A stretch of DNA of 56,509 nucleotides from Bifidobacterium breve (GTDB lineage Bacteria > Actinomycetota > Thermoleophilia > Solirubrobacterales > Solirubrobacteraceae), in assembly GCA_945878865.1 (NCBI GenBank), contig CAMCUD010000025.1, positions 1 through 56,509 of the forward strand, read 5' to 3'. Below are positions 14,072 through 56,509 of this stretch, piece after piece; within the stretch, counting starts at the first letter, position 1, and the number at the start of each line of letters is the position of its first letter. The notes below the pieces were generated by a model, which worked only from the letters and a program-made list of their open reading frames with translations, was not told the origin of the DNA and did no database searches. The translations under genes were made by a program, and so were the position numbers.

Positions 14072-14072
14072 C

Positions 14073-15005: not shown

Positions 15006-15007
15006 AC

Positions 15008-16891
15008 ATGGCGACCATCGACACCACCATCTCCGAGGCCCAGGCGACCGCTCCGGCGGTCGACCTGCTGCGCATCGCCACGGCCGGCTCGGTGGACGAC
15101 GGCAAGTCCACGCTGCTCGGCCGCCTGCTGCATGACAGCAAGGCGATCATGGCTGACCAGCTCGACCACGTCCGCGCGGTCTCGCAGCGACGGGGCTCGG
15201 GCGAGGAGCTCGACCTCTCCCTCATCACGGACGGCCTGCGGGCCGAGCGCGAACAGGGGATCACGATCGACGTCGCGTACCGCTACTTCGCCACGCCGAA
15301 GCGCCGGTTCATCCTGGCCGACACCCCCGGGCACGTGCGCTACACGCGCAACATGGTCACGGGCGCGTCGACCGCCGACGTGGCGGTGCTGCTCGTCGAT
15401 GCCCGCGCCGGCGTCATCGAGCAGACGCGCCGTCACGCGACGATCAGCGCGCTGCTGGGCATCCCCCACATCGTCGTGGCCATCAACAAGATGGACCTCG
15501 CGGGCTGGGACCGCGCGGCGTTCGACCGCGTCGTCGCGGACTTCTCGATCCTGGCCGAGCGCCTGGAGATGCGCGACGTGCACTACATCCCGGTCTCGGC
15601 GCTCCTGGGCGACAACGTCGTCGAGCCGTCCGATCACACGCCGTGGTACGACGGCCTGCCGCTGCTGCCGCACCTCGAGCACGTCGACGTCAGCGCGGCG
15701 CGCTCGCGCCGCTCGGCCGCGCGCTTCCCGGTGCAGTGGGTTATCCGCTCCCAGGACTACCGCGGGTACGCCGGCCAGGTCGCCGGCGGCGAGTTCCGCG
15801 TCGGCGACGAGGTGCTCGTCCTGCCGTCCGGCGACCGGTCGCGCATCTCGGCGATCGACCTCGTCGACGGCGAGGCCGACGTCGCCGCCCCGCCGATGTC
15901 GGTCACGATCCGCCTGGAGGACGACATCGACGTCTCCCGGGGCGACCTCATCTGCCACCCGTCCGACGCTCCCGCGGTGACGCGCGACGTCGAGGCGACG
16001 GTCTGCTGGATGAGCGAGGAGCCGCTGCAGGTCGGGCGCCCGTACCTGCTGCGCCACGCCACGCGCGAGGCGCGCGCGGTCGTCGAGGACGTCCGCGACC
16101 GCCTCGACGTCGAGACGCTCGAGCACGACGCCACGGCCGCGAACCTCCAGCTCAACGAGATCGGCCGCCTGCACGTCCGCACGAGCACGCCGCTGACGCC
16201 CGACGCCTACGGCGCCAACCGCACGATGGGCGCGTTCATCCTCGTCGACCTGCAGACCCGCGACACCGTCGCGGCCGGGATGATCGACGACCCGGCGCCG
16301 GCCCCGCGCAGCGCCAACGTCGTCTGGCAGCAGGGCGACCTGACCCGCGAGAAGCGCTGGTCGGCTCTGCACACCTCGGGCGCGGTGCTGTGGCTCACGG
16401 GCCTGCCCGCCTCGGGCAAGTCGACGCTGAGTGCGGCGATCGAGAGCCGCCTGGTCAGCGCGGGCCGGATGGCCTACATGCTCGACGGCGACAACCTCCG
16501 CCACGGCCTCAACGGCGACCTCGGCTTCGACGCCGCCGCACGCGCGGAGAACGTGCGGCGGACGGCGCACGTGGCGCGGCTACTCGCCGACGCGGGCGTC
16601 GTGGTCATCGTGTCGCTCGTGTCGCCGACGCGGGCCGACCGTGACCTGGCCCGCCAGGTGATGGAGGCCGACGGCCTGCGATTCGTGGAGGTGTGGCTCG
16701 ACACGCCGCTGGAGGAGTGCGAGCGACGGGATCCGAAGGGTCTCTACGCGCGTGCGCGCGCGGGGGAGATCCCGCACTTCACGGGCGTCGGGCAGGCGTA
16801 CGAGGCGCCGGAGGCTCCCGAGGTGGTCGTGCGGCCGCACGAGGGCGTGGACGCCGCGGTGGAGCGGGTGCTCGGCCGGTTGCGCCACTAG
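15008..16891 (+). CDS. cysNC: Bifunctional sulfate adenylyltransferase GTPase / APS kinase (CysNC)
   Basis: A 627-residue fusion. Residues 1-440 are CysN: P-loop GSVDDGKST, switch II DTPGH, NKMD specificity motif and a translation-factor-like beta-barrel. Residues 455-627 are APS kinase CysC: P-loop GLPASGKST near 464, the DGDNLRHGLNGDLGF block and the GVGQAYEAP lid region. CysN powers CysD and CysC phosphorylates APS to PAPS, so CysD and this protein together complete PAPS synthesis. It is the last gene of the operon. A short 172-bp intergenic region with no obvious terminator hairpin follows, before the surface protein operon. Confidence 0.97.
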   Translation: MATIDTTISEAQATAPAVDLLRIATAGSVDDGKSTLLGRLLHDSKAIMADQLDHVRAVSQRRGSGEELDLSLITDGLRAEREQGITIDVAYRYFATPKRRFILADTPGHVRYTRNMVTGASTADVAVLLVDARAGVIEQTRRHATISALLGIPHIVVAINKMDLAGWDRAAFDRVVADFSILAERLEMRDVHYIPVSALLGDNVVEPSDHTPWYDGLPLLPHLEHVDVSAARSRRSAARFPVQWVIRSQDYRGYAGQVAGGEFRVGDEVLVLPSGDRSRISAIDLVDGEADVAAPPMSVTIRLEDDIDVSRGDLICHPSDAPAVTRDVEATVCWMSEEPLQVGRPYLLRHATREARAVVEDVRDRLDVETLEHDATAANLQLNEIGRLHVRTSTPLTPDAYGANRTMGAFILVDLQTRDTVAAGMIDDPAPAPRSANVVWQQGDLTREKRWSALHTSGAVLWLTGLPASGKSTLSAAIESRLVSAGRMAYMLDGDNLRHGLNGDLGFDAAARAENVRRTAHVARLLADAGVVVIVSLVSPTRADRDLARQVMEADGLRFVEVWLDTPLEECERRDPKGLYARARAGEIPHFTGVGQAYEAPEAPEVVVRPHEGVDAAVERVLGRLRH

Positions 16892-16954
16892 GCACTGGCC
16901 GGCGCGCCCCCGAACGTCACCCTTGGTTGACCCGAAAAAAGCTCAGTTGTTGCC

Positions 16955-16976
16955 GTCTCGTGACCATCTGGTGAAG
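16955..16976 (-). promoter_or_regulatory. PHO-box-like direct repeat upstream of the surface protein operon
   Basis: On the minus strand CTTCACCAGAT (16976-16966) runs into GGTCACGAGAC (16965-16955). Weaker in-phase units flank it: TTTCAATACGT at 16998-16988 and GGCAACAACTG at 16954-16944. The pair lies directly upstream of a promoter-like element for the plus-strand operon, though in reverse orientation to it. Confidence 0.55.
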
Positions 16977-16992
16977 ACCCGGTTCCGACGTA

Positions 16993-17020
16993 TTGAAAGC
17001 GGGGCTGGAGGCGTTACCTT
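16993..17020 (+). promoter_or_regulatory. Candidate promoter of the five-gene surface operon
   Basis: TTGAAA (16993-16998) and TACCTT (17015-17020) are separated by 16 nt, a sigma-70-like layout. The start point would fall near 17027, giving a leader of about 37 nt before ATG 17064. No Shine-Dalgarno sequence is evident. The PHO-like repeats end just upstream of the -35. Confidence 0.4.
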
Positions 17021-17063: not shown

Positions 17064-19898
17064 ATGAAGATCCCCGCCTCCGTTCTCGCGGTCCTTTCCG
17101 CGCTGCTCATCCTGTCCGCACCCAGTCGTGCGTGGGGGTGGGCGGAGGCCGGGCGGGTGACGGTGCCGGACGTATCGAAACCTGGGACGTTTCCGACGTT
17201 GCCACCCGATGTCACGGGGGAGCTTGCGAACAAGGTCGACGGCAAACCCGCCAGCGATCGACTCCGAGCCATGACCGCCGCAACTCCCGTGGCGATCGAT
17301 ATTGACGCCTCCGGCACTCCGTACGTGCTTTCGGTCACCCCAAGCGTGGAAGTGGTCGACAAGTTCGGGATAACCCTGTATGAGGCGGCGCTGCTGACGG
17401 TGCGTCGCATCGCCGCGGACGGCAGCGCCACCGAACTCAAGACCTTTCTGACTCAGTCAGAAGGGGGGTGGCCGAGCGCGTTCGATGTCGAGCCCGGCGC
17501 GCTCCCGGCAGGACTCGCGATCGATCGTGGCCTGAACAAGATGTATGTGAGTGTTCCCGGCGAAGGCATCAACGCACTCTCGCTCACGTCTGGGCTGTGG
17601 ACCCGCTTCGTGAGCGACGACCACGTCTTCATCTCGGGGGAGGATGGCCTCGGGTCCGACACGGGCGAGTCGGCCGAGGATGGCACCTACGGAAGCTTGT
17701 GGGAGAACGGCCCGACCGCGCCCGGCGCGATCGGTGTCAACCAGGAGACGCATCGTGTGTACGTCGCCGACGCTGGAGCTGGAGCCGCCACCATTCCGGT
17801 GGATCGCATCAACTACGACGCCGCCGTGGTCCGGGAATTCGAGGTTGATGGGAGCCTCGTGGAGACACTGCCTTTCGATGCTCCTCGTACGGCGAACCCG
17901 CTTGATCAGGTGTACCCGACGACCGACGGACGCGTTGGCGGGTACGGACCGGTTCCGACCCGCTCAGCCTCACTGCTCGGTTTGGACCTGGGCGCAAGCG
18001 ATGACTTGCGGAACCGAATCCCTCGCATCGTGGCGCGGGGCACGACCATCGACGGTGAGGTAACGGCGCTCAACCAGGTGGCACTCATCTCGCGGGACAG
18101 ATTTGGCACCCCCAACCTCAGCGAGGACTACCTGGGCCAGATCGCCTCTGCGCGGAGATCGGGCGGCGGTCCCTGGGCTTACGGCGCCCTGACGGCGACG
18201 GCCGATACCCGGTACTTCGGGCCCAGCAGGTCGAACCTTGGCCCAGGGGTGCAAGATCTCGTCATCTCGAAGCGGGGCAACTATCTCGTCATTGCGTTCG
18301 ACAGCCCCGCCCTCTCCGACGACCAGGACCAACTGCTCGAGATCCAACCCGACGGGACCGTCCTGGGAGGCATTGGGCCGGCAACCGGGTCAAGTGCGTG
18401 CCGCATCGCCTTCCGGCGAGCGCACCTTGCGACCGACCCGTCCGGCGACGTGGTCGTCCTGCAGGCGCCAGATCCGGCGTCGGCGACCAGCAAGGCGCAG
18501 GTCATCCGCCTGAATCCTTCTGGCGCCGATGCGCCGGGGAACCCACAGGGCTGCCAGACATCTGTTCCGCCGGAGGAAGTCAAGAAGACTGCCCCGACCG
18601 TGTCCGTCGCAGGCGTCGAGTTTTCCGGCAAGGCGGACGCCCCTACTCCCATCGGGACGCTCGCGCCGATTGACGATGGGGGCCGCGTCGTGATCGACGC
18701 GGACTCCGAGTCCGCAGGCTTCATGTTCAGCGTGCGAGCAGAGGACGCAGACAATGGAGCGGCGCCGATCGGATCAGCTGCAACCTGCACGATCATTCAG
18801 GTCGGGGGAGCAACAACCCGCCTGCCGTGGCGGAGCTGCCGGCTCGCGATTGATGGAGGTACTGAGTCGTCACTCCAGCTGATCGTCCTCAAGGAGGCGC
18901 TCGACTCGCTTCCGGGCGCCACCCAGACCTTCCAGATCGACATCGTCGACGACGACTCTGGCGCTGACGTCGGAACCGCCAGCTTCCGGTTCTCGGTGCA
19001 GCTTCGCAAGCCGGAGAAGCCGCTGACTGCGTCGCTCACGGGGGACGCCGTCTCGCGCGACACGTTCACGTTCGCCCCGAGCGTCCCCCTCGACGTGAAC
19101 TTCGACTCGTGGCGACTGGACTTCGGCGACGGTGCGACTCCGGCATCGCAGCCTGACGGGGACGGATACTCGACCGACCAGCTTCCGGCCAGGTCGACGG
19201 CAGTCAAGTTCACGCCTGGGGCCCACACCGCATCGTTGACCCTGCGCCGTGACAATGGGCAGCAGTTCACCACGAAGGTGGACATCGTCGTCGATGCGCC
19301 GACGACCGATCGTCCCGTGACGACACCCAGGCCCCAGGGCGGGGCTGCCTGCTCGACGCCGCTGGGCATCCCCCTGTCGCAGCTCGGGCTGGGCGACCAG
19401 ACGCTGTGCGTCCCCGCGGACCCGTGCGACATCGACACCGCGGAGCTCGGCCTCACTCGGCTTCCCATCGAGCGCCCCGCGAGCTGCGCGGGCGACGACG
19501 CCGGCTTCACCGCCTCCGGCCAGGCGCCGCCCCCGCAGGTCGCGTCTCGGCCCGTGTTCCTGGCGCGGACCCTCAAGCTCGCCTGGGACCGTACGGTCGG
19601 CGTCCCGGTGCGCTGCGGCACCGGTCCGACGGCCTGCGCCGGGCGCGTGAAGATCCAGCTGATCACGCGCAGCTCGTCCACGCGGACGCTCGGGTCCTCC
19701 TCGTTCGCCGAGGTCGGCACCGGGAAGCGCAAGACGATCAAGGTCAAGGTGTCGGCGACGCTGGCCCGTCAGCTGCGGCGCACAGGCACCGCCCGCGTCA
19801 AGGTGACGGTCACCCCGAGCGCGCCGACCGGCTTCACGAAGCCGCGGTCCGACGTGCGCACGGTCAGCCTGTCCGCTCCGACCAAGCGGAAGCGGTGA
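17064..19898 (+). CDS. Large secreted protein with PKD-like domain (surface operon gene 1)
   Basis: A 944-residue protein. Residues 1-25 form a signal peptide (MKIPASVLAVLSALLILSAP). Residues 60-500 look like a propeller of short beta repeats (for example LAIDRGLNKMYVSVPGEGI and APGAIGVNQETHRVYVADAG). Residues 660-750 resemble a PKD/Ig-like domain (WRLDFGDGATPAS, then a strand-rich block). The C-terminal 115 residues start VPVRCGTGPTACAGRVKIQL and end with a basic tail, a beta-sandwich seen in many secreted Thermoleophilia proteins. No catalytic motif is visible. The N-terminal two thirds have clearly lower GC than neighbours. It starts a chain of five genes with 4-nt or smaller junctions. 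An in-frame TTG at 17019 is an alternative start. Function unknown. Confidence 0.78.
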   Translation: MKIPASVLAVLSALLILSAPSRAWGWAEAGRVTVPDVSKPGTFPTLPPDVTGELANKVDGKPASDRLRAMTAATPVAIDIDASGTPYVLSVTPSVEVVDKFGITLYEAALLTVRRIAADGSATELKTFLTQSEGGWPSAFDVEPGALPAGLAIDRGLNKMYVSVPGEGINALSLTSGLWTRFVSDDHVFISGEDGLGSDTGESAEDGTYGSLWENGPTAPGAIGVNQETHRVYVADAGAGAATIPVDRINYDAAVVREFEVDGSLVETLPFDAPRTANPLDQVYPTTDGRVGGYGPVPTRSASLLGLDLGASDDLRNRIPRIVARGTTIDGEVTALNQVALISRDRFGTPNLSEDYLGQIASARRSGGGPWAYGALTATADTRYFGPSRSNLGPGVQDLVISKRGNYLVIAFDSPALSDDQDQLLEIQPDGTVLGGIGPATGSSACRIAFRRAHLATDPSGDVVVLQAPDPASATSKAQVIRLNPSGADAPGNPQGCQTSVPPEEVKKTAPTVSVAGVEFSGKADAPTPIGTLAPIDDGGRVVIDADSESAGFMFSVRAEDADNGAAPIGSAATCTIIQVGGATTRLPWRSCRLAIDGGTESSLQLIVLKEALDSLPGATQTFQIDIVDDDSGADVGTASFRFSVQLRKPEKPLTASLTGDAVSRDTFTFAPSVPLDVNFDSWRLDFGDGATPASQPDGDGYSTDQLPARSTAVKFTPGAHTASLTLRRDNGQQFTTKVDIVVDAPTTDRPVTTPRPQGGAACSTPLGIPLSQLGLGDQTLCVPADPCDIDTAELGLTRLPIERPASCAGDDAGFTASGQAPPPQVASRPVFLARTLKLAWDRTVGVPVRCGTGPTACAGRVKIQLITRSSSTRTLGSSSFAEVGTGKRKTIKVKVSATLARQLRRTGTARVKVTVTPSAPTGFTKPRSDVRTVSLSAPTKRKR

Positions 19899-19899
19899 C

Positions 19900-21816
19900 G
19901 TGCGCGTCGTCCGCCGGACACCCGTCGCGCTGTGCGGCGGGGGAGCGCTCTTAATGGCCGCGTCGCTCGCGCTCTCCGCGCCGGCGCGCGCCGACATCCT
20001 CCCGGCGGATCGGATCGACGCCTCCGCCGATGTCCTCGACCTCGGCGGCGTCGCGATGGCCGACGACGGGACCGGCGGCGTGGTCTACCGCCGCCGCGAG
20101 GACGGCCGGCCGCACATCTTCGTCTCGCGGTTCACCGGAAGCAACTGGACGCGCCCCCAGCGCGTCGACAGCGGGCAGCAGTTCGAATCGACATGGCCGC
20201 GGATCGCCGCCGCGTCACGCGGGCGCCTGCTCGTGACGTGGGTCCAGCCGGCGCGCCGGACGATCGACGGCACGATCAACTCGCTCTACGCCGCCTGGAA
20301 GGCGCCCGGGTCGGCGACGTTCACTGCGCCGACGGTGGTCGACCCCGACGTCGGCTCCGGCCTGGGCCTGTTCCCGTCGCTCGCGCTCGCGGCCAACGGA
20401 GGCGCCGGCTTTCTCACGTATGTGCGTCAGCAAGGGGACCTCGCGGAGTTTCGCCTCGCGCAGTTCCGGGGAGGGCTGACGTGGTCTCGCCGGCCGATCC
20501 CGCGGAAGTCCAACCGGGCGCTGAGCTCCCTCACCGCCGAGACCGCCCCGAAGGTCTCCGTCGACGCGACGGGGAACGCGGTCGTCGGCTACATCGAGCC
20601 CGACCAGGACAACATCGACCGCGTCTACGCGCGCCGCGTCTTCTCCGGGGACCTCTCGGTCGTCCCCTTGCTGGCCAGCCCGGCTGCGATCGACGGCCGT
20701 CCGGTCACCGGAGCGGCGGACCAGTTCGCGCTGAGCGTCGGCGGGTTCGGGGAGGCGTCGTTCGTGATCCGCCAACAGCTCGACGCCTCCTCCTCGGCCG
20801 CGCAGGTCTTCGTCAACACGCTGCCGCCGATCTTCACGGATGGTGCGAAGGACTTCACCGGCGCCCGCGCCCTGCCGGCGCCGGCAGGCGGCATCCCCGC
20901 GGGGGTGAGCGCCGGGACGAACACCGATGGCGGCGGATTCCGCGTGGCGTACGGGCTGGGGAGCACGTTCGTGCTGACGACGTCGTCCGACGGCGTCGCG
21001 CTCGGCAGCCCCATCCGCGTCGGCACGCCAGGCAACATCGCCCCGGGCGTGCCGAAGATCGCGATGGGCCCGAAGGGCGCTGCCGTGCTCGCACGCCGGC
21101 TGACGATCTCAGGGCTCGACGGGGTGGAGGTCCGCGAGGTCCCGGCGACCGGGGTACACCGCCGCGCACAGGTCGCCTCGTCGCGAGGCGGCTTGGTCAC
21201 CGGCGTCGAGGTTGCGGGCTCCGGGTTCGGCGACGGGGTGGTCGCGTTTCGCTCGGAATCTCAGGGCGCCGGTGAGATCTCCGCCGCGACGGTCGACGCG
21301 GCGCCCGGGGTCTTCGCCGTGACCACGCCGACCGACTGGGTCCGCCCGGCACGCGCACGGATTACATGGGAGCCCGCGAGCAATGCGCTCGGTCGCCTGC
21401 GCTACGAGGTGTATCTCGACGGCACGAAGGCCACCGAGCTGGCCTCCGGCATCGCGTTCAGGTTCCCTCGGGCGGGTCTGGAGGACGGCCGCCATCGTGT
21501 GCAGGTGCGCGCCGTCGACCGGCGCGGTCAGCGGACGCTGTCCAACCAGGGAACGCTGAAGGTCGACGGAACGGCCCCGGAGGTGACGGTCACCGCGCGG
21601 CGCGGCCGCCGGGCGGCCGTTCGGATCACCGATCGCGGGCGCTCGGGCCTCGACACGGAGCGGTCGAAGGTGGTGTGGGGCGACGGCGACGACAGTCCGG
21701 CCGCCAACCAGCTGTCTCACGCGTACAAGCGCGCGTGCCGGTGCCGCGTCACCGTGACCGCGACCGATCGCGCAGGCAACCGCCGGACCGTGCGAACCAG
21801 GGTGGTGGTCAAGTGA
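19900..21816 (+). CDS. Secreted beta-propeller protein with Fn3-like domain (surface operon gene 2)
   Basis: A 638-residue protein starting at GTG 19900, 1 nt after the previous stop. Residues 1-29 are a signal peptide ending SAPARA. Residues 45-450 contain sialidase or propeller-like repeats with Trp- and Asp-rich turns (GSNWTRPQRVDSG, RGRLLVTWVQPA, GNAVVGYIEPDQDN), but no Asp-box catalytic set is clear. Residues 475-560 look like a fibronectin type III domain (RARITWEPASNALGRLRYEV). The C-terminal 70 residues resemble a PKD-type strand pattern (VVWGDGDDSPAANQLSHAYK). It is probably an extracellular structural or binding protein. Function unknown. Confidence 0.75.
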   Translation: MRVVRRTPVALCGGGALLMAASLALSAPARADILPADRIDASADVLDLGGVAMADDGTGGVVYRRREDGRPHIFVSRFTGSNWTRPQRVDSGQQFESTWPRIAAASRGRLLVTWVQPARRTIDGTINSLYAAWKAPGSATFTAPTVVDPDVGSGLGLFPSLALAANGGAGFLTYVRQQGDLAEFRLAQFRGGLTWSRRPIPRKSNRALSSLTAETAPKVSVDATGNAVVGYIEPDQDNIDRVYARRVFSGDLSVVPLLASPAAIDGRPVTGAADQFALSVGGFGEASFVIRQQLDASSSAAQVFVNTLPPIFTDGAKDFTGARALPAPAGGIPAGVSAGTNTDGGGFRVAYGLGSTFVLTTSSDGVALGSPIRVGTPGNIAPGVPKIAMGPKGAAVLARRLTISGLDGVEVREVPATGVHRRAQVASSRGGLVTGVEVAGSGFGDGVVAFRSESQGAGEISAATVDAAPGVFAVTTPTDWVRPARARITWEPASNALGRLRYEVYLDGTKATELASGIAFRFPRAGLEDGRHRVQVRAVDRRGQRTLSNQGTLKVDGTAPEVTVTARRGRRAAVRITDRGRSGLDTERSKVVWGDGDDSPAANQLSHAYKRACRCRVTVTATDRAGNRRTVRTRVVVK

Positions 21817-23726
21817 AGACGCGTGCCGGCGCCGCCATGGCGCTCCTGCTGGTGCTGTTCGCCGCCGTGCCTGTCGCGGCGCACGCGGGGTGGAGCCGTT
21901 CCCGGCTGATGTCGGCGGCCGGCGACGAGCAGGCGATCGACCGGTTCTCCATATCAGCGGCGTCGAACCGGTCAGAGCTTGTCGGACCGCCTGCCGTGTC
22001 AGCCGACGGTCGCTACGCCGCCTTCGACAACAGGGCGCAGAACCTGCTCGTGTCTGCTGGACCGGCGGCTCAGGCCGACGCCGAGGGCGGCGTCTTCCGC
22101 CGCGACATCGATTCGGGCGCGCTGGACATCGTCGCCCTTGCGGCCACTCCCGGTGGGTCGGGACGCACCGTGCGCCCCGTCGCGCTGAGCGCTGACGGCC
22201 GCTACGTCGCGTTCGCCACCGCACGGCCACTGGTGCCTGCTGACGTGAACGCACGGACGGACGTGTACGTCCGCGACATGGCGAAGCCCGACGGGTTCAC
22301 GCTCGTCTCCACCGGCACATCGACGGCTAACGCGACGCTCCCCAGCGTCAAGAGCCTCTCGGCCGATGGCCGTCGCGTGCTCTTCGTCGAAGGAGAGACG
22401 CTGGCGGTGCGCGATCTGGACAGCGGTGCGAGCACCGCGATCACCACGAGCCTCATGGGCGGCCTGTCGGAGGGCGACGACAATCCCATCGCGCTCAGCC
22501 CCGACGGGTCGACGGTCGTCTGGCCCGATGCCAAGCCGCGCGACGTGGCGTCCGTCGGCCAGTACCTCGGTGGCGAGCGCCCGCTTGTGCTGAACAAGGG
22601 CGAGACGAACTCGGACAACCCTCCCTGGGACGTGACCGCTGATCTGCTCTGGCGTCGCGTCGGCGACCCGACGGTGCGACGGGTCGTGGCTGGCGGGGAC
22701 AGCGAGGATCCCGCGTGCGCTGCCGGATCGGTCCTCACACAGGACGATCCAGCACGGCCCGAAGGCGTCCGCGGCCCGTGCGACGGGCCGTTCAGCTTCT
22801 CCACGGCTGCTCCGAGCCCCAGCTCGGTCACGGGCGTTGACCTGAATACGACCGGCGACCAGGTCGCGGTGGTCTTCGGTGGTCAGCGGCGCGACGGCGG
22901 GACCGGCGCGGAGCTCTTCCTGCGGGACATGGCCGCAACCGGTGGCCGGAAGGCAACCACCCGGACGCTGACCGCATTCGCCGGCGGGGACGCAAGCGGC
23001 GCGGTCGACATCTCGGCGAACGGGCGCATGATCGCGTTCGCCGCCGACACCGATGCATCCACGCTGCCCGTGCCGACCTTCGTCGGAACCAGCATCGGCC
23101 GCGGCGCGCAGAACGTGTACGCGATGGATCTCGACACGCAGACGTTCGAGCGCGTCACGCGCGCGTACACCTCCGATCCCACTGATGGCAACTCGACGTC
23201 GGCGGCGATCAGCGGGACCGGAGACCGCGTCGTGCTCCGCTCGGTCGCGACGAATCTGCTCTTCGGCGACTTCAACGCGAACTCGGACATCTTCGTCGCC
23301 GATCGCTTCGACGACCGGCAACCTCCGCTCGTGAGCGTGGGTGCGACCTCCGCGCCTCTGTCGGACACGGAGATCGCACCCGTGTGGCGTCTGTCGGCAA
23401 CCGTGTCGCGAGGTGGTCGCACGCTCTACGTCGATGTGCGCGTGCCCGCCGCCGGCCGCGTGACGGCATCGGCCCGTCGTGTCCGCGTGCGGGTGCGCGG
23501 GCGCACGCGGGTGGCGCCGGTGCTCGTCACCAAGGGACGGGCCGACGCGCGGCAGCCCGGCGCCGTCCGGGTCCGGCTCCGGCTGCCCCAGCGCTACCGC
23601 CGGACCGCGCGCGGGAAGAGCGGGCTGCCCGTCCGCGTCACCGTGCAGTTCAAGCCCGCGCGCGCGGGATCCACGCTCACCCGGACGTTGGATACGCGCT
23701 TCACGACCAAGAGCACCCAGCGATGA
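21813..23726 (+). CDS. Secreted TolB-like/WD40-like propeller protein (surface operon gene 3)
   Basis: A 637-residue protein starting at GTG 21813, whose GTGA overlaps the previous stop. Residues 1-25 are a signal peptide (LLLVLFAAVPVAAHA). Residues 55-500 hold repeats of the TolB/PD40 type: PAVSADGRYAAFDNRAQNL, ALSADGRYVAFATARPL, ALSPDGSTVVWP and ISANGRMIAFAADTD, each followed by a strand such as DVYVRDM. The last 120 residues form an Arg-rich beta-sandwich. TolB-like propellers usually bind other proteins. It has no Tol-Pal context here. Coupled by 4-nt overlaps on both sides; function in the operon is unknown. Confidence 0.78.
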   Translation: MKTRAGAAMALLLVLFAAVPVAAHAGWSRSRLMSAAGDEQAIDRFSISAASNRSELVGPPAVSADGRYAAFDNRAQNLLVSAGPAAQADAEGGVFRRDIDSGALDIVALAATPGGSGRTVRPVALSADGRYVAFATARPLVPADVNARTDVYVRDMAKPDGFTLVSTGTSTANATLPSVKSLSADGRRVLFVEGETLAVRDLDSGASTAITTSLMGGLSEGDDNPIALSPDGSTVVWPDAKPRDVASVGQYLGGERPLVLNKGETNSDNPPWDVTADLLWRRVGDPTVRRVVAGGDSEDPACAAGSVLTQDDPARPEGVRGPCDGPFSFSTAAPSPSSVTGVDLNTTGDQVAVVFGGQRRDGGTGAELFLRDMAATGGRKATTRTLTAFAGGDASGAVDISANGRMIAFAADTDASTLPVPTFVGTSIGRGAQNVYAMDLDTQTFERVTRAYTSDPTDGNSTSAAISGTGDRVVLRSVATNLLFGDFNANSDIFVADRFDDRQPPLVSVGATSAPLSDTEIAPVWRLSATVSRGGRTLYVDVRVPAAGRVTASARRVRVRVRGRTRVAPVLVTKGRADARQPGAVRVRLRLPQRYRRTARGKSGLPVRVTVQFKPARAGSTLTRTLDTRFTTKSTQR

Positions 23727-25579
23727 GCCAGCGCGTCCGCAGCGTGATCCTCGGCCTGGCAGCGGTCACCGCGTTGGCGTGGGCGTCGCCTGCGGTCGCC
23801 GGGCAGGTGGCTTGGCGCTCAGCGCAGCCAGCCCCGCCGCCGGGGGCGCCGTTCTCCAGCTCGGTGGGGTCGGTGGCAGCGATGGAGTTCGCCGCGCCGA
23901 ACCTCGGCCTCATGATGGTCGGCGGCGCGGGGTACGGCAACGGCCTGCTCGTGTTCGACGGGACCGGCTGGCGCCAGTCATCCACCGTCTGCGGCGGCAC
24001 GGTCGGCGCGATCGCGTGGGCGGGCCCCCGCGAGTGGTGGACCGTCGGGCCCGAGGCGCTGAAGCCCAAGAGCACGCAGCCCATCGCGCTCTGCCACTTC
24101 CGCGACGGCGCGGTCGTCGGCTCGTACGCCGTGCCGCCCTCCGACCTCACGAACTCGTACCCGTCGCTGCGGGCCGCGGCCTGCACCGGGCCTTCGGACT
24201 GCTGGTTCGCCGGGGAGATCACCGATCAGCCCACGATCGGGGCGCTGTACCTGCACTGGGACGGGTCGCAGCTGCGGCGGATCGTGCACCCCGCCGCCCG
24301 CGGGGTGGGCGCGATGCAGGCCTTCGCCGGCGGGGTGGTCGCCGGCACCGCGGTCGGTCCAACCCGTGGGGAGATCACCGTGCCGTCGGCCGATCCGACG
24401 GTCCGCTACGTCCTGACGCCCGACTCGGTCAACCGCGCCGAGGTCACCGATCCTGCGCTTGCGAGCAAACCGCGCCTCCTGCGCCTCCTCGGCGCCGACG
24501 GGAGCGTCACCGTCCCGACGTGGGCGCCGCGTCAGGATCGTGCGAGCGACGTGCAGGGCTCCGGGCTGCCGACGAACCTCATCGACACCGTCGCGCTGGA
24601 CACCGAGGGAAGCGCGCTGTGGCTCGCGGCGCGAGGCTCCCGGTCGGCGACGCGGCCGCTGCTGCCGACCGATCCTCCGCTGAGCGGGGACGACGTCCCG
24701 GATCAGCTCAACCCTGTCTCCCAGCGTCCGTACGTCGCCGTCCAGCGACCGGGGCGTTCCGAGCCGGAGGAACTCATCTGGCGCGCCGATGCGCAGATCA
24801 GCTCGAATGAGGTGATCCACGACATCGCGGCGATCCCAGGGACCAACGACGCCTGGATCGCGCTCCGAGACGACACGGTCGCCGGGGGTCCGGACACCGG
24901 TGCCCGGGCAGCGACGCTCGCGCGCATCCGGTTCGCCGCGACAGCTGGGGGACTCGAGGGCGAGGTTGTCGAGCGGGTCGACCTCCAGCGCCCCGATCTG
25001 AACATCGGCGGGGCGGCACGCCTGGAATGCCCCGCGCCGTCTGACTGCTGGCTGGCGACGGCGGGCGGGTGGATCTACCACTGGTCCGATCCCGACGTCC
25101 CGACGGAGCAGAACTCTGATCCGGTCTTCCAGCAGCTCATCACATCGCGCCCGCCCGACGGGCGGACACCGCGCGACGACCCCGACACGCTGCCCGCCGA
25201 CGAGGCCGCAGGGTTCGTCGCGCCCCCGGTCGAGCAGGACAAGCCCGCCGATGTGCCGGCCGCGAAGCGCATCCCGGCGCTCTTCAAGGTGCTCGGCAAG
25301 CCGAAGGTCCGCAAGGTCCGCGGCCGGTACATCATCGAGTTGCGCATCCAGCTGCGGCGCAAGGCGCGCATCCAGCTCGTGGGTCGTCGCAACGGCCGCG
25401 TGGTCGCCAAGACGAAGCAGCGCACGTACAAGAAGGGGCGCTACGTCCTTCGCCTGAAGGTCAAGCGCTCCGCCTGGCCGACCGCGCTGAAGTTCGTCAC
25501 CCGCGATCTCGAGATCAAGGAGGCGCCGGCCGAGGACGACATCGGCGGCGACTCCGGCGACACCGTCACGACAGGGTGA
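23723..25579 (+). CDS. Secreted propeller-like protein with SDCW motifs (surface operon gene 4)
   Basis: A 618-residue protein starting at ATG 23723, overlapping the previous stop by 4 nt. Residues 1-26 are a signal peptide ending SPAVAG. The body shows propeller-like repeats, and two Cys-pair motifs of one kind, ACTGPSDCWFAG (near 153) and ECPAPSDCWLAT (near 435). Such motifs mark blades of secreted propellers in high-GC actinobacteria, where the Cys pair is likely disulfide-bonded. Residues 545-590 form a basic beta-sandwich (RIQLVGRRNGRVV), and the tail is acidic (EDDIGGDSGD). No catalytic residues are evident. Function unknown. Confidence 0.75.
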   Translation: MSQRVRSVILGLAAVTALAWASPAVAGQVAWRSAQPAPPPGAPFSSSVGSVAAMEFAAPNLGLMMVGGAGYGNGLLVFDGTGWRQSSTVCGGTVGAIAWAGPREWWTVGPEALKPKSTQPIALCHFRDGAVVGSYAVPPSDLTNSYPSLRAAACTGPSDCWFAGEITDQPTIGALYLHWDGSQLRRIVHPAARGVGAMQAFAGGVVAGTAVGPTRGEITVPSADPTVRYVLTPDSVNRAEVTDPALASKPRLLRLLGADGSVTVPTWAPRQDRASDVQGSGLPTNLIDTVALDTEGSALWLAARGSRSATRPLLPTDPPLSGDDVPDQLNPVSQRPYVAVQRPGRSEPEELIWRADAQISSNEVIHDIAAIPGTNDAWIALRDDTVAGGPDTGARAATLARIRFAATAGGLEGEVVERVDLQRPDLNIGGAARLECPAPSDCWLATAGGWIYHWSDPDVPTEQNSDPVFQQLITSRPPDGRTPRDDPDTLPADEAAGFVAPPVEQDKPADVPAAKRIPALFKVLGKPKVRKVRGRYIIELRIQLRRKARIQLVGRRNGRVVAKTKQRTYKKGRYVLRLKVKRSAWPTALKFVTRDLEIKEAPAEDDIGGDSGDTVTTG

Positions 25580-28500
25580 CCATGGCGTCGATCCTCCGTC
25601 ATGCACGGCAGCGCCGTGCCGTGCTCCTCATCGCCCTGCTCGCGGCGGGCGTGATCGCGTTCGTCGCGCGGCCGGACGCCGCGCGCCCCGAGGGCGCGAG
25701 CCAAGCGTCCACCTCGTGGCCGGTGTCCTCCCTGCCCGCGCGCCCGGTGGTGCCGATCGGCGCCTCCGGCGACGAGGTGTGGGCGTTCGGCCGGGCCACG
25801 TCCGCGACGGTCGCCACCCCCGACAAGGCCACAGGCGCGGTGCTGCTGCGCCAGCGCGGCGACGGCGACTGGGAGTACGTCTCCCGCGTCCTCAGGCGCG
25901 GCGGCGAGCCCGAGAGCACCTTCCCGGTGGCGAGCGCCGGGCCGACCCCGGCGCGCGTGACCCCGCGCGGCGGCATCGTCCTGGCGGGAACCGACGAGAC
26001 GGTCTACGTCCGTGACCCCGGCGGTCCGCTGCGGGCCGTCGAGTCGCCGACGTCGCTGCTGGGAACCGGCCAGCGGCTCGTGGGAGGAAGCCGCGCGACC
26101 GTGGCGGCCGTGGACGAGGGATCGGCCACGGGCGCGTTCGTTGCGCCGATCGGCGACACCGAGGATCGCGTCCTGTACCACGGTGCCGCGGGGTGGACCG
26201 AGGAGCGGTTCGATCCCGCGATCACAGGCGGCAACGTGAAGATCGCGGCGATCGCGGGAACCGGCCCGACCGACATGTGGCTGACGCTCGACCAGGGCAA
26301 CGGGGTCGAGCTCTACCGCCGTGACACCTCTGCGGCCACGCCGGTCTGGAAGAAGGTGACGCTCAGCGGAGCCAAATCGTTCATCACCGCCGCCGGCGCG
26401 CGACCGCTCGCCTACCCGGCCGAGGGGCTCACGTCCGCGGGCGACGGCCTCTGGATCGACGCGCGCGCGACCGTCGGCGGCGCGATGCGGGACGTCGTCA
26501 TGTTCTTCGACACATCGAGCCGCCAGGTGACGCGCACATGGTGCGACGACGCCGCGTGCGACGCGAAGCTCGGCATCTCGCTCGGCGGCGCCCCGACCCC
26601 TCAGCCCGACGGCACGGTCGAGGGGACCCGCGACGCCACGACCCGGGGCTACCGGTCGTTCGCTTGGGACGGCGCGTCGTTCGGGACCAGGGTCATCACC
26701 AACCCGGATCTCGGCATCAGCCCGGCGAAGGCCGGCGGCACGGGATACGCGGTCTTCGACGGCGCGTCGTTTACGGCGGTCCGTGCGGGCGCGACGCGGC
26801 TGCAGGCGGCCGACGGCGCGTTCACATCGCCGAGCAGTGGGTGGATGGCGGGCAACCTGTGGTCGGTTATCCGCGTGGCACCGGCTGCCCCGCCGGCGCG
26901 TCTCCAGGCCTACCCGGCGCCGTCGTCGCGCCCGTTCCGCGCGGTCGTGCCCGAGCCGGGGCGCTCTGCCGGCGACCCGGGGGCGCAGGCGCTCGCCGTC
27001 GGCGACGACGGTCGCGTCGCGCGGTATTCCCCCGAGCGCGGGTGGGTCGCCGAGCAGCTGCCGACGTCCAGCGGCCGTGCCACCCCCCGGCTGCGCGGAG
27101 TGGCATGGCCGGAGACCGGGCGGGCCCACGCGGTCGGCGACAACGGCGAGATGTGGTTGTGGCGCGCGGAGACCGGACTGTGGGAGCGCGACGAGAATGC
27201 CCCGCAGGATCTCGCCGGGGACCGCTACAACGGGATCGCCTTCCAGCCGGGCAACCCCGACCGCGGCTATGCGATCACCGACGCCGGCCGCATCTTCTCC
27301 TACGGCAAGGGCTGGTCCGAGGACGCCGTTCCGGCGCTCGACCGCCGGGACAGCCTGCTGAGCATCGCGTTCGCGGGCAACCAGGCGCTCGTCGCCGCGC
27401 AGAAGACCCTGCTCGTCAATGACGGCAGCGGGTGGTCCGTCGACCAGCAGGCGGTCGACCTTCTCAAGGAGTACGGCTCCAAGGAGATCACGGCCGTCGC
27501 AGGGCTGCCGGACGGCGGCGCGATCGCGGCCGGCACGGGCATCGTCATCGTTCGCGACCAGGCGGGCTCGCCCTGGCGGCTCGCCGACCACCAGCTCGTG
27601 GGAACGGTCACGGCGCTTGCCGCGACCCGCGATGGCGACAAGGTGCGGGGCGTCGCGATCCTGAACTACCCGCAGGCGACAAGCGACCCGTTCGCCGACG
27701 TCGCAGAGCTCCCGGTGGACGAGCCCGGCGAGGTCCCGACGCAGTATCCGTCGACGCCGGATGTCGGATGGGGCGGCGTCGTCCGCGAGACGGCGACCGG
27801 GTGGGCCGACGACGTGCGGTCCTCCTACCAGCAGGAGGACGCGTACGCCGACTGCCCGTACATCCCCGACGCGGCCCGCGCCCTGGCGATCGACGCGGCG
27901 GGCGACGGCTGGGTCGTCGGCGGCGACGGCACCGCGCGCGCGGACGAGCAGTGCGGACCGTCGGGCGGCACGGACCAGCAGACGTCGGCGATCTGGCGCT
28001 ACGGCGCCCAGCCGCAGCCGCCGCCGGCGATCGCGCGCGCGCAGGAGCCGCTTGCCGCCGGCCCGGCGCGGCTGCTCCTCGGTGGCCACGCGGCGTGCAC
28101 CGAGGCGTGCGCGACCACCGCGGTGCCCGGGCACGCACCGGATCGGTATCTCGCCGCCGCGATCGATGTCGCGAGCGAGCTCTATGCCACGACTGGCGGC
28201 CCGCGGGCCTTCCTGTACACGGGCACGCGCGTGGCGCCATCGCGTGCTGGGGCGGCGGCAGAGCAGGTCCGGTTCGCCTCCCTGCTCGGGACGGCGACCG
28301 GTCGCGTCCCCGTGTATCTGGCGCCGTCGGGAACGGACGCCGGCGCGGACGCGACGACGTTCGGCTCGGCCTTCAGTGGGCTTGCGGCGCCCCAGGGCGC
28401 CGGCGCGCAGCCGGGGACGGTGTCGACGGCCGGAGTCATCGGCAGCGAGCCTGCGGGGTCGGCGCGCACCCACTACGCCTTCGACACCACCGGTCCCGAG

Positions 28501-29973
28501 GGACGGCTCCGCGTCGTCGTGATCGACAACTCCAGTGGCTCTCTGGCCGAGAGCGATCCCCATCAGATTCCCCAAGAGTCCGACGGCCAGGCCGGCTGGC
28601 TGGTCCGCACCCTCGAGCAGGCCAAGGCTCAGGGCGTCCCGACCGTGGTGATGGGCAGCCGGCCGCTGGGAGCGGCCGGAGCGCGGTCTCTCGCGGCGGA
28701 ACCGGGCGCCGGTGAGGGGGCGCGCATCAACTACCACGTCAGCGCGAGCGATGGCGTGGAGGTGGCGAAGCTCCTCGTCGATCACGGCGCCTCGGCGTAC
28801 CTCTTCGATGCCGCCGAGCAGAACCTCGTCACGCGCGTCCCGGAGAACGCGGGTGACACCATTCCGGCGATCGGGTCGGGTGCCCTCGGCTACGAGGCAC
28901 GGACGAACGTCACCGATGCGGGGCTGGCGCTGGTCGATTTCGACCTGCGCAGCCGCAATCCGCAGACCAACCGCGTGCCCGTGAAGGCGTCCATCGTGCC
29001 GGTCCTCGAGGACCTGACCATCGACCCGCGCGACGGGACGCAGGTGCGGCGCTCGACCGCCGCCCTCTTCGTGGCGCTCGGCCGCCGGCCCCGTGCCGGC
29101 CGTCAGTGGATCGAGACGGGGCCGCTCAGCGGACCGGACAAGGCGGTCTCCCAGCCGTACATCAGCATCCCGAACGAGACGTGCCGCCGGCAATCCTGCA
29201 GCCTCGACCTCGACTACTCGTTCACGTCCTCCAATCCCGAGGTCGGCGACTTCGTCAAGCAGGACCCGGCGCGCTCGACGAACCCGCGGGCGGTGTTCCT
29301 CGGTGAGAACGACAAGCCTGTGGGCGACGGCAGGTCGGGCCTGTTCTGCGCGTTCAACCCGGGGGAGACGACGATCAAGGTGACGGCTGGCGGGCTGGCG
29401 TACTCGACCACGATCAAGGTCCTCGCCGGCAGTCCCCGGCGCCCGTGCGGGACGCGACCCGTGACCGCGACCGAGGTTCCGAACGCCTCGGCTCCGAACC
29501 CGACGCCGGGCGCCGCTGCCGCCCCGCCGAGCGTCGCGCCGAACCCGACGATCGCGCCGCCGCCCCCAGTCGCCGTTCCGGTGCCGACGGCGATACCGGC
29601 GACTCCGGCGGCGGTCGTCACGCCACCCCCCGCCGCGGTTCTGCCGTCGATTCCGCCGCTCCCCGTCCTGCCGCCTCCTCCGGCGCCGCTGGCGACGCCG
29701 CTGGTGCCGATTCCGCCGCCGCCGGTCGGCAGCATCGCGCGCCCGTCGCCGCCGGGCGGCGCGACCGTCCGCGTCTACGAGGAGAAGCGCGAGGAGGAGG
29801 AGGCGTTCGAGCAGTCGTCGGCCTCCGTGAAGTACGAGCGCCGGTCATCGCCCCTGCCCGGGCCCACGACCACCGTGGCGGTCATGCTTCTCGCTGCCGC
29901 CGCCGGCAGCACCATCGTTCGGCGGCGTCCGCGGCGGAGCCGCCGAACGATTGCCCGACAAGAGGTGCGTTAG
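25576..29973 (+). CDS. Giant surface protein: propeller, metallophosphoesterase-like region, Ig-like domain, Pro-rich stalk, C-terminal anchor (surface operon gene 5)
   Basis: A 1465-residue protein, largest in the window. GTG 25576 overlaps the previous stop by 4 nt; ATG 25582 is an alternative. Residues 13-32 form an N-terminal signal or anchor. Residues 40-820 show propeller-like repeats (RGVAWPETGRAHAVGDNGEM, GDGWVVGGDGT). Residues 830-1100 resemble secreted calcineurin-type phosphoesterases (LLLGGHAACTEACATTAV, RVVVIDNSSG, QAGWLVRTLEQAKAQGVPTV), but the full metal-ligand set is not obvious. Residues 1215-1290 look like a BIG2 Ig-like domain (GETTIKVTAGGLAYSTTIKV). Residues 1310-1395 are Pro-rich. 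A membrane segment (about 1433-1450) and a tail of Arg residues end the protein, so it should stand on the cell surface. Function unknown. Confidence 0.8.
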   Translation: MTMASILRHARQRRAVLLIALLAAGVIAFVARPDAARPEGASQASTSWPVSSLPARPVVPIGASGDEVWAFGRATSATVATPDKATGAVLLRQRGDGDWEYVSRVLRRGGEPESTFPVASAGPTPARVTPRGGIVLAGTDETVYVRDPGGPLRAVESPTSLLGTGQRLVGGSRATVAAVDEGSATGAFVAPIGDTEDRVLYHGAAGWTEERFDPAITGGNVKIAAIAGTGPTDMWLTLDQGNGVELYRRDTSAATPVWKKVTLSGAKSFITAAGARPLAYPAEGLTSAGDGLWIDARATVGGAMRDVVMFFDTSSRQVTRTWCDDAACDAKLGISLGGAPTPQPDGTVEGTRDATTRGYRSFAWDGASFGTRVITNPDLGISPAKAGGTGYAVFDGASFTAVRAGATRLQAADGAFTSPSSGWMAGNLWSVIRVAPAAPPARLQAYPAPSSRPFRAVVPEPGRSAGDPGAQALAVGDDGRVARYSPERGWVAEQLPTSSGRATPRLRGVAWPETGRAHAVGDNGEMWLWRAETGLWERDENAPQDLAGDRYNGIAFQPGNPDRGYAITDAGRIFSYGKGWSEDAVPALDRRDSLLSIAFAGNQALVAAQKTLLVNDGSGWSVDQQAVDLLKEYGSKEITAVAGLPDGGAIAAGTGIVIVRDQAGSPWRLADHQLVGTVTALAATRDGDKVRGVAILNYPQATSDPFADVAELPVDEPGEVPTQYPSTPDVGWGGVVRETATGWADDVRSSYQQEDAYADCPYIPDAARALAIDAAGDGWVVGGDGTARADEQCGPSGGTDQQTSAIWRYGAQPQPPPAIARAQEPLAAGPARLLLGGHAACTEACATTAVPGHAPDRYLAAAIDVASELYATTGGPRAFLYTGTRVAPSRAGAAAEQVRFASLLGTATGRVPVYLAPSGTDAGADATTFGSAFSGLAAPQGAGAQPGTVSTAGVIGSEPAGSARTHYAFDTTGPEGRLRVVVIDNSSGSLAESDPHQIPQESDGQAGWLVRTLEQAKAQGVPTVVMGSRPLGAAGARSLAAEPGAGEGARINYHVSASDGVEVAKLLVDHGASAYLFDAAEQNLVTRVPENAGDTIPAIGSGALGYEARTNVTDAGLALVDFDLRSRNPQTNRVPVKASIVPVLEDLTIDPRDGTQVRRSTAALFVALGRRPRAGRQWIETGPLSGPDKAVSQPYISIPNETCRRQSCSLDLDYSFTSSNPEVGDFVKQDPARSTNPRAVFLGENDKPVGDGRSGLFCAFNPGETTIKVTAGGLAYSTTIKVLAGSPRRPCGTRPVTATEVPNASAPNPTPGAAAAPPSVAPNPTIAPPPPVAVPVPTAIPATPAAVVTPPPAAVLPSIPPLPVLPPPPAPLATPLVPIPPPPVGSIARPSPPGGATVRVYEEKREEEEAFEQSSASVKYERRSSPLPGPTTTVAVMLLAAAAGSTIVRRRPRRSRRTIARQEVR
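29515..29757 (+). repeat. Proline-rich low-complexity stalk coding region
   Basis: The DNA codes for runs such as PPPPVAVPVPTAIP and LPVLPPPPAPLATPLVPIPP. At protein level this is a rigid Pro/Ala/Val spacer between the Ig-like domain and the membrane segment, as in proteins that cross a thick wall. Confidence 0.75.
29914..29951 (+). terminator. Hairpin at the 3' end of the surface operon
   Basis: ATCGTTCGGCGGC (29914-29926) and its exact complement (29939-29951) make a 13-bp stem with a 12-nt loop, 20 nt before the stop codon. There is no T-run, so it is not a classic intrinsic terminator. It may protect the mRNA end or promote attenuation just before the pstS promoter. Confidence 0.4.
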
Positions 29974-30038
29974 GTCACAGGTCCGACACAGGACCTTCAC
30001 CAGACCTTCTCCAAACCATTCCAGGACGGTCACGGAGG
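29973..30038 (+). promoter_or_regulatory. PHO box: six tandem 11-bp units upstream of pstS
   Basis: Six contiguous 11-nt units start at 29973, 29984, 29995, 30006, 30017 and 30028. The best are GGTCACAGGTC, CTTCACCAGAC and GGTCACGGAGG; the others (CGACACAGGAC, CTTCTCCAAAC, CATTCCAGGAC) keep most of the core and the trailing AC. This is the direct-repeat design of actinobacterial PhoP sites. The last unit ends 16 nt before a TACGAT -10-like hexamer. The first unit overlaps the stop codon of the preceding gene. Confidence 0.8.
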
Positions 30039-31752: not shown

Positions 31753-31763
31753 ACCTTGAACCC

Positions 31764-31794
31764 GAGGGCCGGGACCCCTGAGGTCCCGGCCCTC
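31764..31794 (+). terminator. Hairpin downstream of pstS (second, 13-bp stem)
   Basis: GAGGGCCGGGACC (31764-31776) and its exact complement (31782-31794) form a 13-bp GC-rich stem with a 5-nt loop. No T-run follows; in very GC-rich actinobacteria such stems often act as terminators all the same. Confidence 0.65.
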
Positions 31795-31845
31795 GCCGGT
31801 TCAGCAGCCAGCTCGTCGTTCCCCGTCCCCCGCCCCTCTGGAGCG

Positions 31846-34513: not shown

Positions 34514-34671
34514 GGTCCATTGGAAGTGTGAGTACCCGTTGGTGCCGAAATGTGAAGAAAAAGAGACGAACTTGAAAGAATCGCGGGGTCTGCTTCGTTA
34601 TGCGGGGACATGGCGAGTCCACGCTCGAGATTTCCGCACGCGATCGCCCAGCCCTCGGGCCGGGGTCGCGC

Positions 34672-53215: not shown

Positions 53216-53596
53216 TCAGCGCGCGCGAAGCGTCGCGCGCATCCCGGCCGCGGCGTGGCCGTCGAGCGAGCACCACAGGCGCCAGCGGCCTGCCGTCAGG
53301 TGGACGGTGGCCTCGGTCAGCGTGCCGGGGTGGGTCATCGGCACGGCGCGGGTCGGGCCGACGGGCCGGCCGCGACGATCGAGGCGGCGCAGGCGCAGGT
53401 CGTGGTCGTCCTCGCCAGCGTTCTGCAGCTGGATCGCCACGCGGCCCGAGGGCACGGTCGCGCGCGACAGGGTGACGGACCACTCACGCGCGTCGACGAA
53501 CAGCGGCGCGGGGCTCTTCGCGGGCGCGCGGGTCGCCGCGCCGATCGCCAGGACGATCGCCAGCACGACGATCGGGATGATCACGCGGGGGCTCAC
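53216..53596 (-). CDS. Small membrane-anchored cupredoxin-like protein
   Basis: A 126-residue protein starting at GTG 53596, whose GTGA overlaps the DUF1501 stop. Residues 5-22 form a membrane anchor (VIIPIVVLAIVLAIGA). Residues 38-126 look like a cupredoxin: H65 in GEDDHDLRL, C109 and H114 in WCSLDGHAAAGM, and M119, the four ligands of a type 1 copper site in the usual order. It should be a blue-copper electron carrier on the outer membrane face. It lies last in a DUF1800-DUF1501-cupredoxin operon. The electron partner is unknown. Confidence 0.82.
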   Translation of the reverse strand: MSPRVIIPIVVLAIVLAIGAATRAPAKSPAPLFVDAREWSVTLSRATVPSGRVAIQLQNAGEDDHDLRLRRLDRRGRPVGPTRAVPMTHPGTLTEATVHLTAGRWRLWCSLDGHAAAGMRATLRAR

Positions 53597-56390: not shown

Positions 56391-56509
56391 GGGAGCGGAC
56401 GGCCGGCAGTCCGTCTTCCCTCGTCTTCGGCAGCCGCGCCCGCGGGTCAAGTGCGATGCGACAGGGGTCCAGTCGGCGCGCCGCCAGGATGGGGGGAGAC
56501 GGGGCGGCG

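What the first reader, a model, noticed from the sequence alone, without database searches (positions are those of the whole stretch)
17064..29973. Five coupled large secreted proteins without recognised function
Five genes of 944, 638, 637, 618 and 1465 codons follow each other with 1-nt gaps or 4-nt overlaps. All have N-terminal signals; each looks like a propeller followed by an Ig-like or basic beta-sandwich end. Only the last has a C-terminal membrane anchor. The tight coupling of unlike propellers suggests a fixed-ratio extracellular complex mounted on the anchored protein. Its place between a PHO-like box and the PHO-controlled pstS hints at phosphate scavenging or a starvation-specific surface layer. 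I know of no described system of this make-up.
Basis: inference. Interest (0 to 1): 0.72.

Follow-up and report, generated by a model that had tools for sequence, protein, structure and literature searches.

The report
Phosphate-starvation surface protein module, Solirubrobacteraceae
Five large secreted proteins are encoded together in a soil-type actinobacterium as part of a conserved, previously undescribed gene set that travels with phosphate-uptake genes and their switch sequences; its membrane-anchored member carries a phosphate-cutting enzyme fold that has lost its metal-binding residues, so the set probably captures or handles phosphate at the cell surface during starvation.

Summary
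In detail: five ORFs (944, 638, 637, 618, 1465 codons), 1-nt gap then three 4-nt overlaps, with secretion-type N-termini. The coupling is conserved in two congeners. P2, P3, P4, P5 and the next gene (a large PstS-like protein) form a module found in about 28 of 201 sampled genomes of the order, nearly all Solirubrobacteraceae. Gene order varies, and an FtsH-type membrane protease and a ~255-aa secreted protein (c7) usually accompany it. In this genome those two sit beside the main pst operon. The phosphate link is real: a matrix of 11-nt repeats trained only on genuine pst/pho promoters ranks the promoters of P1 and of the PstS-like gene as the two best sites in the window, and likewise in two congeners. 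The PstS-like protein keeps the phosphate-site motifs. P5 contains a metallophosphoesterase fold (Z 19.5) with every metal-ligand motif lost in all 32 aligned members: a new, membrane-anchored pseudo-phosphoesterase. In this genus the module is inserted in a sulfated-exopolysaccharide locus. Best reading: a Pho-regulated surface phosphate-capture apparatus. A physical fixed-ratio complex is untested. Not described in the papers I could search.

The parts
16946..17000 (-). PHO-box-like array of 11-nt repeats upstream of P1 (on the coding strand CTCGTGACCAT CTGGTGAAGAC CCGGTTCCGAC GTATTGAAAGC, 16957-17000)
   Evidence: best site of the whole window, 24.9 bits, with a matrix trained on true pst/pho promoters; top site also at P1 in L001 and L002
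17064..19898 (+). P1, 944 aa secreted protein; genus-level member; C-terminal basic domain shared with other secreted proteins of the family
   Evidence: no Pfam or NCBIfam match
19900..21816 (+). P2, 638 aa secreted sialidase-type beta-propeller followed by Ig-like and PKD-like domains; conserved module member
21813..23726 (+). P3, 637 aa secreted PD40/TolB-type propeller with basic C-terminal domain; conserved module member
23723..25579 (+). P4, 618 aa secreted protein with basic C-terminal domain; conserved module member, no known family
25576..29973 (+). P5, 1465 aa membrane-anchored surface protein
28033..29070 (+). P5 residues 820-1165: calcineurin-like metallophosphoesterase fold with all metal-ligand motifs lost (pseudo-phosphoesterase)
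   Evidence: fold; motif columns; profile match to SMPDL3B and Rv0805; no Pfam match
29071..29475 (+). P5 residues 1166-1300: Ig-like (BIG-type by eye) domain
   Evidence: alignment; inference
29713..29946 (+). P5 tail: Pro-rich end, near-invariant GSIARPSPPGGATVRVYEEKREEEEAFEQSS motif, TM helix, Arg-rich end
   Evidence: occurs once in the genome, so not a general sorting tag
29972..30037 (+). PHO-box-like array, six 11-nt units (AGGTCACAGGT CCGACACAGGA CCTTCACCAGA CCTTCTCCAAA CCATTCCAGGA CGGTCACGGAG), upstream of the PstS-like gene
   Evidence: second-best site of the window, 24.5 bits; conserved in L001 and L002
30109..31719 (+). PstS-like phosphate-binding protein, 536 aa, solo (no pstCAB behind it)
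   Evidence: Pfam PBP_like_2 3.5e-13; PDB PstS profile match 3e-20; GSG, D, RxDxSGT motifs kept in 16 members
31756..33441 (+). DUF4394 + Calx-beta secreted protein with basic C-terminal domain (real start probably inside the ORF); follows the module in L001 too
34546..34580 (-). weaker PHO-like array between a PAS-wHTH-BTAD regulator (33419-34513 -) and the HEAT/sulfotransferase/Wzz/Wzy genes
   Evidence: 16.9 bits; near-identical sequence in L001 at 19008
13040..16891 (+). context: sulfotransferase 13040, cysD 14028, cysNC 15008 (sulfate activation), syntenic in congeners

Best explanation
A phosphate-starvation-induced cell-surface apparatus for capturing or handling phosphate. SHOWN computationally: a conserved module (P2-P5, a large PstS-like protein, an FtsH-type protease, secreted protein c7) whose leading genes carry the same 11-nt repeats as the pst/pho promoters, and whose anchored member P5 has a phosphoesterase fold without its metal ligands. 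INFERRED steps: a PhoB/PhoP-type regulator switches the operon on when phosphate is low; the five proteins are made together and exported; P5 stays in the membrane and reaches out through its Pro-rich spacer; its dead phosphoesterase domain no longer cuts but binds a ligand or docks partners; P1-P4 propellers and basic C-terminal domains bind wall or matrix polymers; the PstS-like protein captures phosphate in that layer and passes it to the Pst transporter; FtsH removes P5 when it is no longer needed.
For: Promoter test: matrix from true pst/pho promoters; the two best of about 113,000 window positions are the P1 and PstS-like promoters, and the top two distinct sites are the same promoters in L001 and L002. 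Outside the training loci 16/39 leading-gene promoters (PstS-like, P2, P1) reach 14 bits against 5/152 other genes (p 5e-9) and 0/39 internal genes. Neighbourhood: PstC/PstA, PstS, PhoU-type and PhoB-type wHTH genes beside the module in L034, L037, L038, L054, and Pst genes beside P2 in L092 and L093. Own genome: FtsH and c7 directly next to pstS-pstC-pstA-pstB-phoU; the P5 paralogue with its own FtsH near another PstC/PstA. PstS site motifs invariant. Co-occurrence of P2 and P5: 27 both, 4 P2 only, 1 P5 only, 169 neither, p 4e-28. P5 fold: Foldseek top 19 all metallophosphoesterases, VIA Z up to 19.5; ligand motifs absent in all 32.
Against: No expression, binding or interaction data. Genomes are related, so p-values overstate independence. 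The matrix was trained on only 10 arrays, some from the same genome. The P5 paralogue cluster carries no such box, so the P5/FtsH pair is not always Pho-boxed. FtsH promoters outside the training loci do not pass the threshold (0/12). P5 and P2 models have low mean confidence (pLDDT 50 and 55). No phosphatase or phytase activity is predicted for any of the five. In the window the module lies in an EPS locus, not next to pst.
Confidence: 0.62

Rival explanations
1. Phosphate-sparing surface remodelling: when phosphate is scarce the cell swaps phosphate-rich wall polymers for a sulfated exopolysaccharide, and P1-P5 are the protein part of that new surface layer rather than a phosphate-capture device.
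For: cysD, cysNC, two sulfotransferases, Wzz- and Wzy-like genes flank the module, with synteny in congeners; a PHO-like array precedes the HEAT-sulfotransferase-Wzz-Wzy genes and is near-identical in L001. Teichoic-to-teichuronic switching under Pho control is a known precedent (PMC4415409).
Against: In the rest of the family the module is not next to cysNC or sulfotransferases (cluster c13 in 3 loci only); no box at the ecf-sulfotransferase-cysDNC promoter; the PstS-like protein keeps its phosphate site.
Confidence: 0.15
2. P5-FtsH is a sensing device: P5 reads the outside (phosphate ester or wall state) with its dead phosphoesterase domain and is turned over by FtsH to set Pho signalling; the propellers are ligands or modulators.
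For: The FtsH-P5 pair is the oldest constant: together in the main clusters, in paralogue clusters L052, L051, L059-L061 and in another family of the class, L088, where they overlap by 4 nt; near-invariant juxtamembrane motif.
Against: No kinase, receiver or other signalling domain in P5; in the window genus FtsH is not in the operon; P2-P4 have no obvious place in it.
Confidence: 0.13
3. An operon of convenience: unrelated secreted proteins of the starvation regulon share a promoter but form no apparatus.
For: Gene order outside the genus is shuffled and P1 is genus-specific; nothing shows physical contact.
Against: P2-P5 and the PstS-like gene stay together through many rearrangements and are gained or lost together; 4-nt coupling is kept in congeners.
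Confidence: 0.1

Closest known systems
Pho regulon with PstSCAB high-affinity phosphate uptake
   Same: 11-nt direct-repeat operators, PstS-type binding protein, neighbours pstC, pstA, pstB, phoU and a PhoB-type regulator in relatives
   Different: adds a conserved set of large secreted propeller proteins, a dead anchored phosphoesterase and an FtsH protease; the PstS-like protein is large and solo, with a basic C-terminal domain in many relatives
Calcineurin-like metallophosphoesterases (acid sphingomyelinase, SMPDL3A/B, GpdQ, Rv0805, Lmo2642)
   Same: fold of P5 residues 820-1165
   Different: D-x-H, GD, GNH, GH and GHxH metal-ligand motifs lost in all 32 aligned members; no Pfam match
Plasmodium GAP50
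   Same: a phosphoesterase-like fold described in the structure title as an anchor (PDB 3tgh, VIA Z 16.1)
   Different: eukaryotic inner-membrane-complex protein; analogy of use only
FtsH AAA+ protease (Pfam AAA + Peptidase_M41)
   Same: c4 has the Walker motif and HEAAH zinc site
   Different: a subfamily tied to P5 and phosphate genes, additional to the best FtsH match on another contig

Membership tests
Pho regulon member | PHO-box direct repeats of 11 nt matching those at the cell's own pst promoters | tested here: met
   top two sites of the window; same in two congeners
Pho regulon member | PhoB/PhoP binding and induction at low phosphate | not testable with these tools
   needs EMSA, RNA-seq or proteomics
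PstS phosphate-binding proteins | PBP fold family and phosphate-site motifs | tested here: met
   Pfam PF12849 and PDB PstS profile match; GSG, D, RxDxSGT invariant or nearly so
PstS phosphate-binding proteins | encoded with its permease pstCAB (usual, not strictly defining) | tested here: not met
   no permease follows in the window; pst operons lie on other contigs; so called PstS-like, not the PstS of a PstSCAB operon
Metallophosphoesterase (P5) | calcineurin-like fold | tested here: met
   Foldseek 3.7e-7, VIA Z 19.5; model of low mean confidence
Metallophosphoesterase (P5) | two-metal ligand motifs D-x-H, GD, GNHD/E, GH, GHxH | tested here: not met
   so not filed as an active enzyme
Beta-propeller proteins (P1-P5) | repeated blades or propeller fold match | tested here: inconclusive
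   met for P3 and P2; weak for P5; no match for P1 and P4
Sortase/exosortase-type substrate (P5 tail) | tag shared by many proteins of the genome | tested here: not met
   the tail matches only P5 in its genome

The most novel reading that the evidence does not exclude
A new kind of extracellular phosphate-acquisition machine of actinobacteria: a membrane-anchored pseudo-phosphoesterase holds a layer of propeller proteins and a giant PstS on the cell surface under starvation control and FtsH turnover, relaying phosphate to the Pst transporter; in this genus it is merged with a sulfated matrix that replaces phosphate-rich polymers.
Probability: 0.25. Interest if true: 0.82.

Novelty: new variant of a known kind. 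Interest (0 to 1): 0.64.

Why it matters
Bacterial phosphate uptake is usually pictured as PstSCAB plus secreted phosphatases. This module adds about seven conserved proteins of no known function to that regulon in a family common in soils and deserts, including an unrecognised pseudo-phosphoesterase family paired with its own FtsH. It gives clear targets for testing how thick-walled cells handle phosphate outside the membrane, and whether they trade phosphate for sulfate in surface polymers.

Tried and rejected
General sorting-tag idea for the conserved P5 tail: rejected, one match in the genome. P1 as orthologue of the c10 propeller-PKD proteins of other clusters: only the basic C-terminal domain aligns. 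P5 as an active phosphoesterase: rejected by motif loss. Sequence-only PDB search with P5, or with a 3-sequence profile, gave nothing useful; the 31-member profile put metallophosphoesterases on top but only at E 0.16-0.9. P4: no PDB or Pfam relative (one weak Phytase-like match in one of 21 members). PHO box at 12143: weak with the matrix (7.7 bits), not claimed. ORF 33482-34072 (+), first taken as a gene, lies opposite a real regulator gene 33419-34513 (-). Several genome-search runs failed while the machine was down; the full-length P5 query never ran. Literature searches found no description of the module.

Full report
OBSERVATION. The window is contig C25 of a 4.96-Mb, 96%-complete draft. 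Two genomes of the same genus, one of them apparently Svornostia abyssi (L001), hold the same five in the same order between cysNC and the PstS-like gene; 4-nt overlaps are kept at seven of the eight junctions of L001 and L002. L001 shows frame breaks in P1, P2 and at the end of P5, which may be sequencing errors.

A CONSERVED MODULE. Searching 201 genomes of the order with a P5 segment gave matches in 30, of which 28 were strong. A P2 segment gave strong matches in 31. 27 genomes have both; four have P2 only and one P5 only (Fisher p 4e-28; the genomes are related, so this overstates the strength). One of the four P2-only genomes shows the P5 tail at a contig edge (L092), so true agreement is higher. 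Fetched neighbourhoods show P2, P3, P4, P5 and the PstS-like gene together in about 20 loci in several orders, often with an FtsH-type protease (cluster c4; Pfam AAA + Peptidase_M41; HEAAH and Walker motif) and a ~255-aa secreted protein (c7). P1 is restricted to the genus. In a phylum-wide sample P5 relatives are rare outside the family: one in another family of the class has FtsH and P5 overlapping by 4 nt (L088), and one in a different class has a PstS-like gene nearby (L089).

THE PHOSPHATE LINK. In L034, L037, L038 and L054 the module lies beside PstC/PstA-type permease genes (PF00528), a PstS, in L034 a PhoU-type protein, and a PhoB-type winged-helix regulator. In L092 and L093 P2 is divergent from a PstS gene followed by permease genes. 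In the window's own genome the missing partners FtsH and c7 are directly beside pstS-pstC-pstA-pstB-phoU on contig C2, and the P5 paralogue with its FtsH on C1 lies about 10 kb from another PstC/PstA pair. So the operon in the window looks like the detached half of a module whose other half sits at the pst locus.

THE SWITCH SEQUENCES. PHO boxes are 11-nt direct repeats (PMC4415409). I built an 11-nt unit matrix from ten arrays at genuine pst/pho promoters (L034, L037, L054, L070) and scored three consecutive units. The best two sites in the window, both strands, are at the promoters of P1 (24.9 bits) and of the PstS-like gene (24.5 bits); in L001 and L002 the two best distinct sites are again those two promoters. 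Outside the training loci, 16 of 39 upstream regions of PstS-like, P2 and P1 genes reach 14 bits, against 5 of 152 other genes (p 5e-9) and 0 of 39 internal genes P4, P5 and c7. Three of those five 'others' are the two divergent genes at window 34578 and the L001 counterpart upstream of the HEAT gene.

THE PSTS-LIKE PROTEIN. It matches PstS structures (best E 3e-20) and keeps the GSG, DEPP and RxDxSGTT motifs through 16 members, which align with the PstS motifs, so it probably still binds phosphate. In many relatives it carries a basic beta-sandwich-like C-terminal domain resembling the ends of P1, P3, P4 and the DUF4394 protein.

P5, A DEAD PHOSPHOESTERASE ON A STALK. Residues 820-1300 were modelled from three sequences (pLDDT 50, pTM 0.54). 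Despite the modest confidence, the 19 best Foldseek matches are all metallophosphoesterases (SMPDL3, acid sphingomyelinase, GpdQ, Lmo2642), and VIA-align gives Z up to 19.5 over about 250 residues. An independent profile of 31 members puts SMPDL3B and Rv0805 on top by sequence, though only at E 0.16-0.9. At the five metal-ligand motifs no member of 32 has the canonical residues: GD became GT/GG, GNHD became e.g. SGTD or SAGD, GH became GS, GHxH became FDxxE or YExxE. No member matches any Pfam phosphoesterase model. The domain is followed by an Ig-like region, a Pro-rich stretch, a near-invariant motif, a TM helix and an Arg-rich end. The tail occurs nowhere else in the genome. Plasmodium GAP50, titled an anchor in its PDB entry, appears in the same list (Z 16.1) and is a useful analogy for a phosphoesterase fold used as an anchor.

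THE OTHER PROTEINS. P2 is modelled as a sialidase-type propeller with Ig-like and PKD-like ends. P3 has PD40 propeller repeats. P4 and P1 have no recognisable family. Sialidase-type folds are common to many glycosidases and lectin-like proteins; no activity is claimed.

LOCAL CONTEXT. Only in this genus does the module follow ecf sigma - sulfotransferase - cysD - cysNC and precede DUF4394/Calx-beta, HEAT, sulfotransferase, Wzz-like, Wzy and glycan genes. No PHO-like site precedes the cysDNC operon, but one precedes the HEAT-sulfotransferase-Wzz-Wzy set and is near-identical in L001. This raises a phosphate-sparing rival, with the known teichoic-to-teichuronic switch as precedent (PMC4415409).

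LIMITS. Gene calls in relatives come from a simple GC-based caller of mine plus tblastn. Statistics ignore relatedness. No signal-peptide tool was used. Regulation, binding, complex formation and phosphate transfer are inferences. The literature library is partial, so 'undescribed' means not found in it.

Noticed in passing
window 34546-34580; L001 about 18975-19010: PHO-like array between a PAS-wHTH-BTAD regulator (33419-34513, -) and the HEAT/sulfotransferase/Wzz/Wzy genes, near-identical in Svornostia: possible phosphate control of sulfated polysaccharide genes.
   Followed up: partly
L070 12714-13076 (own genome C2), L034 3866-4234: Stand-alone PhoB-type winged-helix DNA-binding proteins of about 120 aa without a receiver domain, next to the pst operon and themselves preceded by the 11-nt repeats.
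   Followed up: partly
L052 5564-12117 (own genome C1:254000-273990): Paralogous FtsH + P5 pair near another PstC/PstA set, without PHO-like repeats.
   Followed up: partly
L070 10734-11558 and relatives (cluster c7): About 255-270-aa secreted family with WCL...CxxLGGxLPTAAQL motifs, looks like a C-type-lectin or DUF1566-like fold by eye; no Pfam match; constant partner of the module.
   Followed up: no
window 31756-33441, 17064-19898, 21813-25579; L037, L040, L042 PstS-like ends: A basic C-terminal beta-sandwich-like domain recurs on many secreted proteins of this family; possibly a shared wall- or polymer-binding domain.
   Followed up: no
L001 (Svornostia abyssi) P1, P2 and end of P5: Apparent frame breaks in three module genes of the deposited sequence; sequencing error or decay not distinguished.
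   Followed up: no
window 53593-56450 (-): Adjacent DUF1501 and DUF1800 genes, not linked to the module.
   Followed up: no
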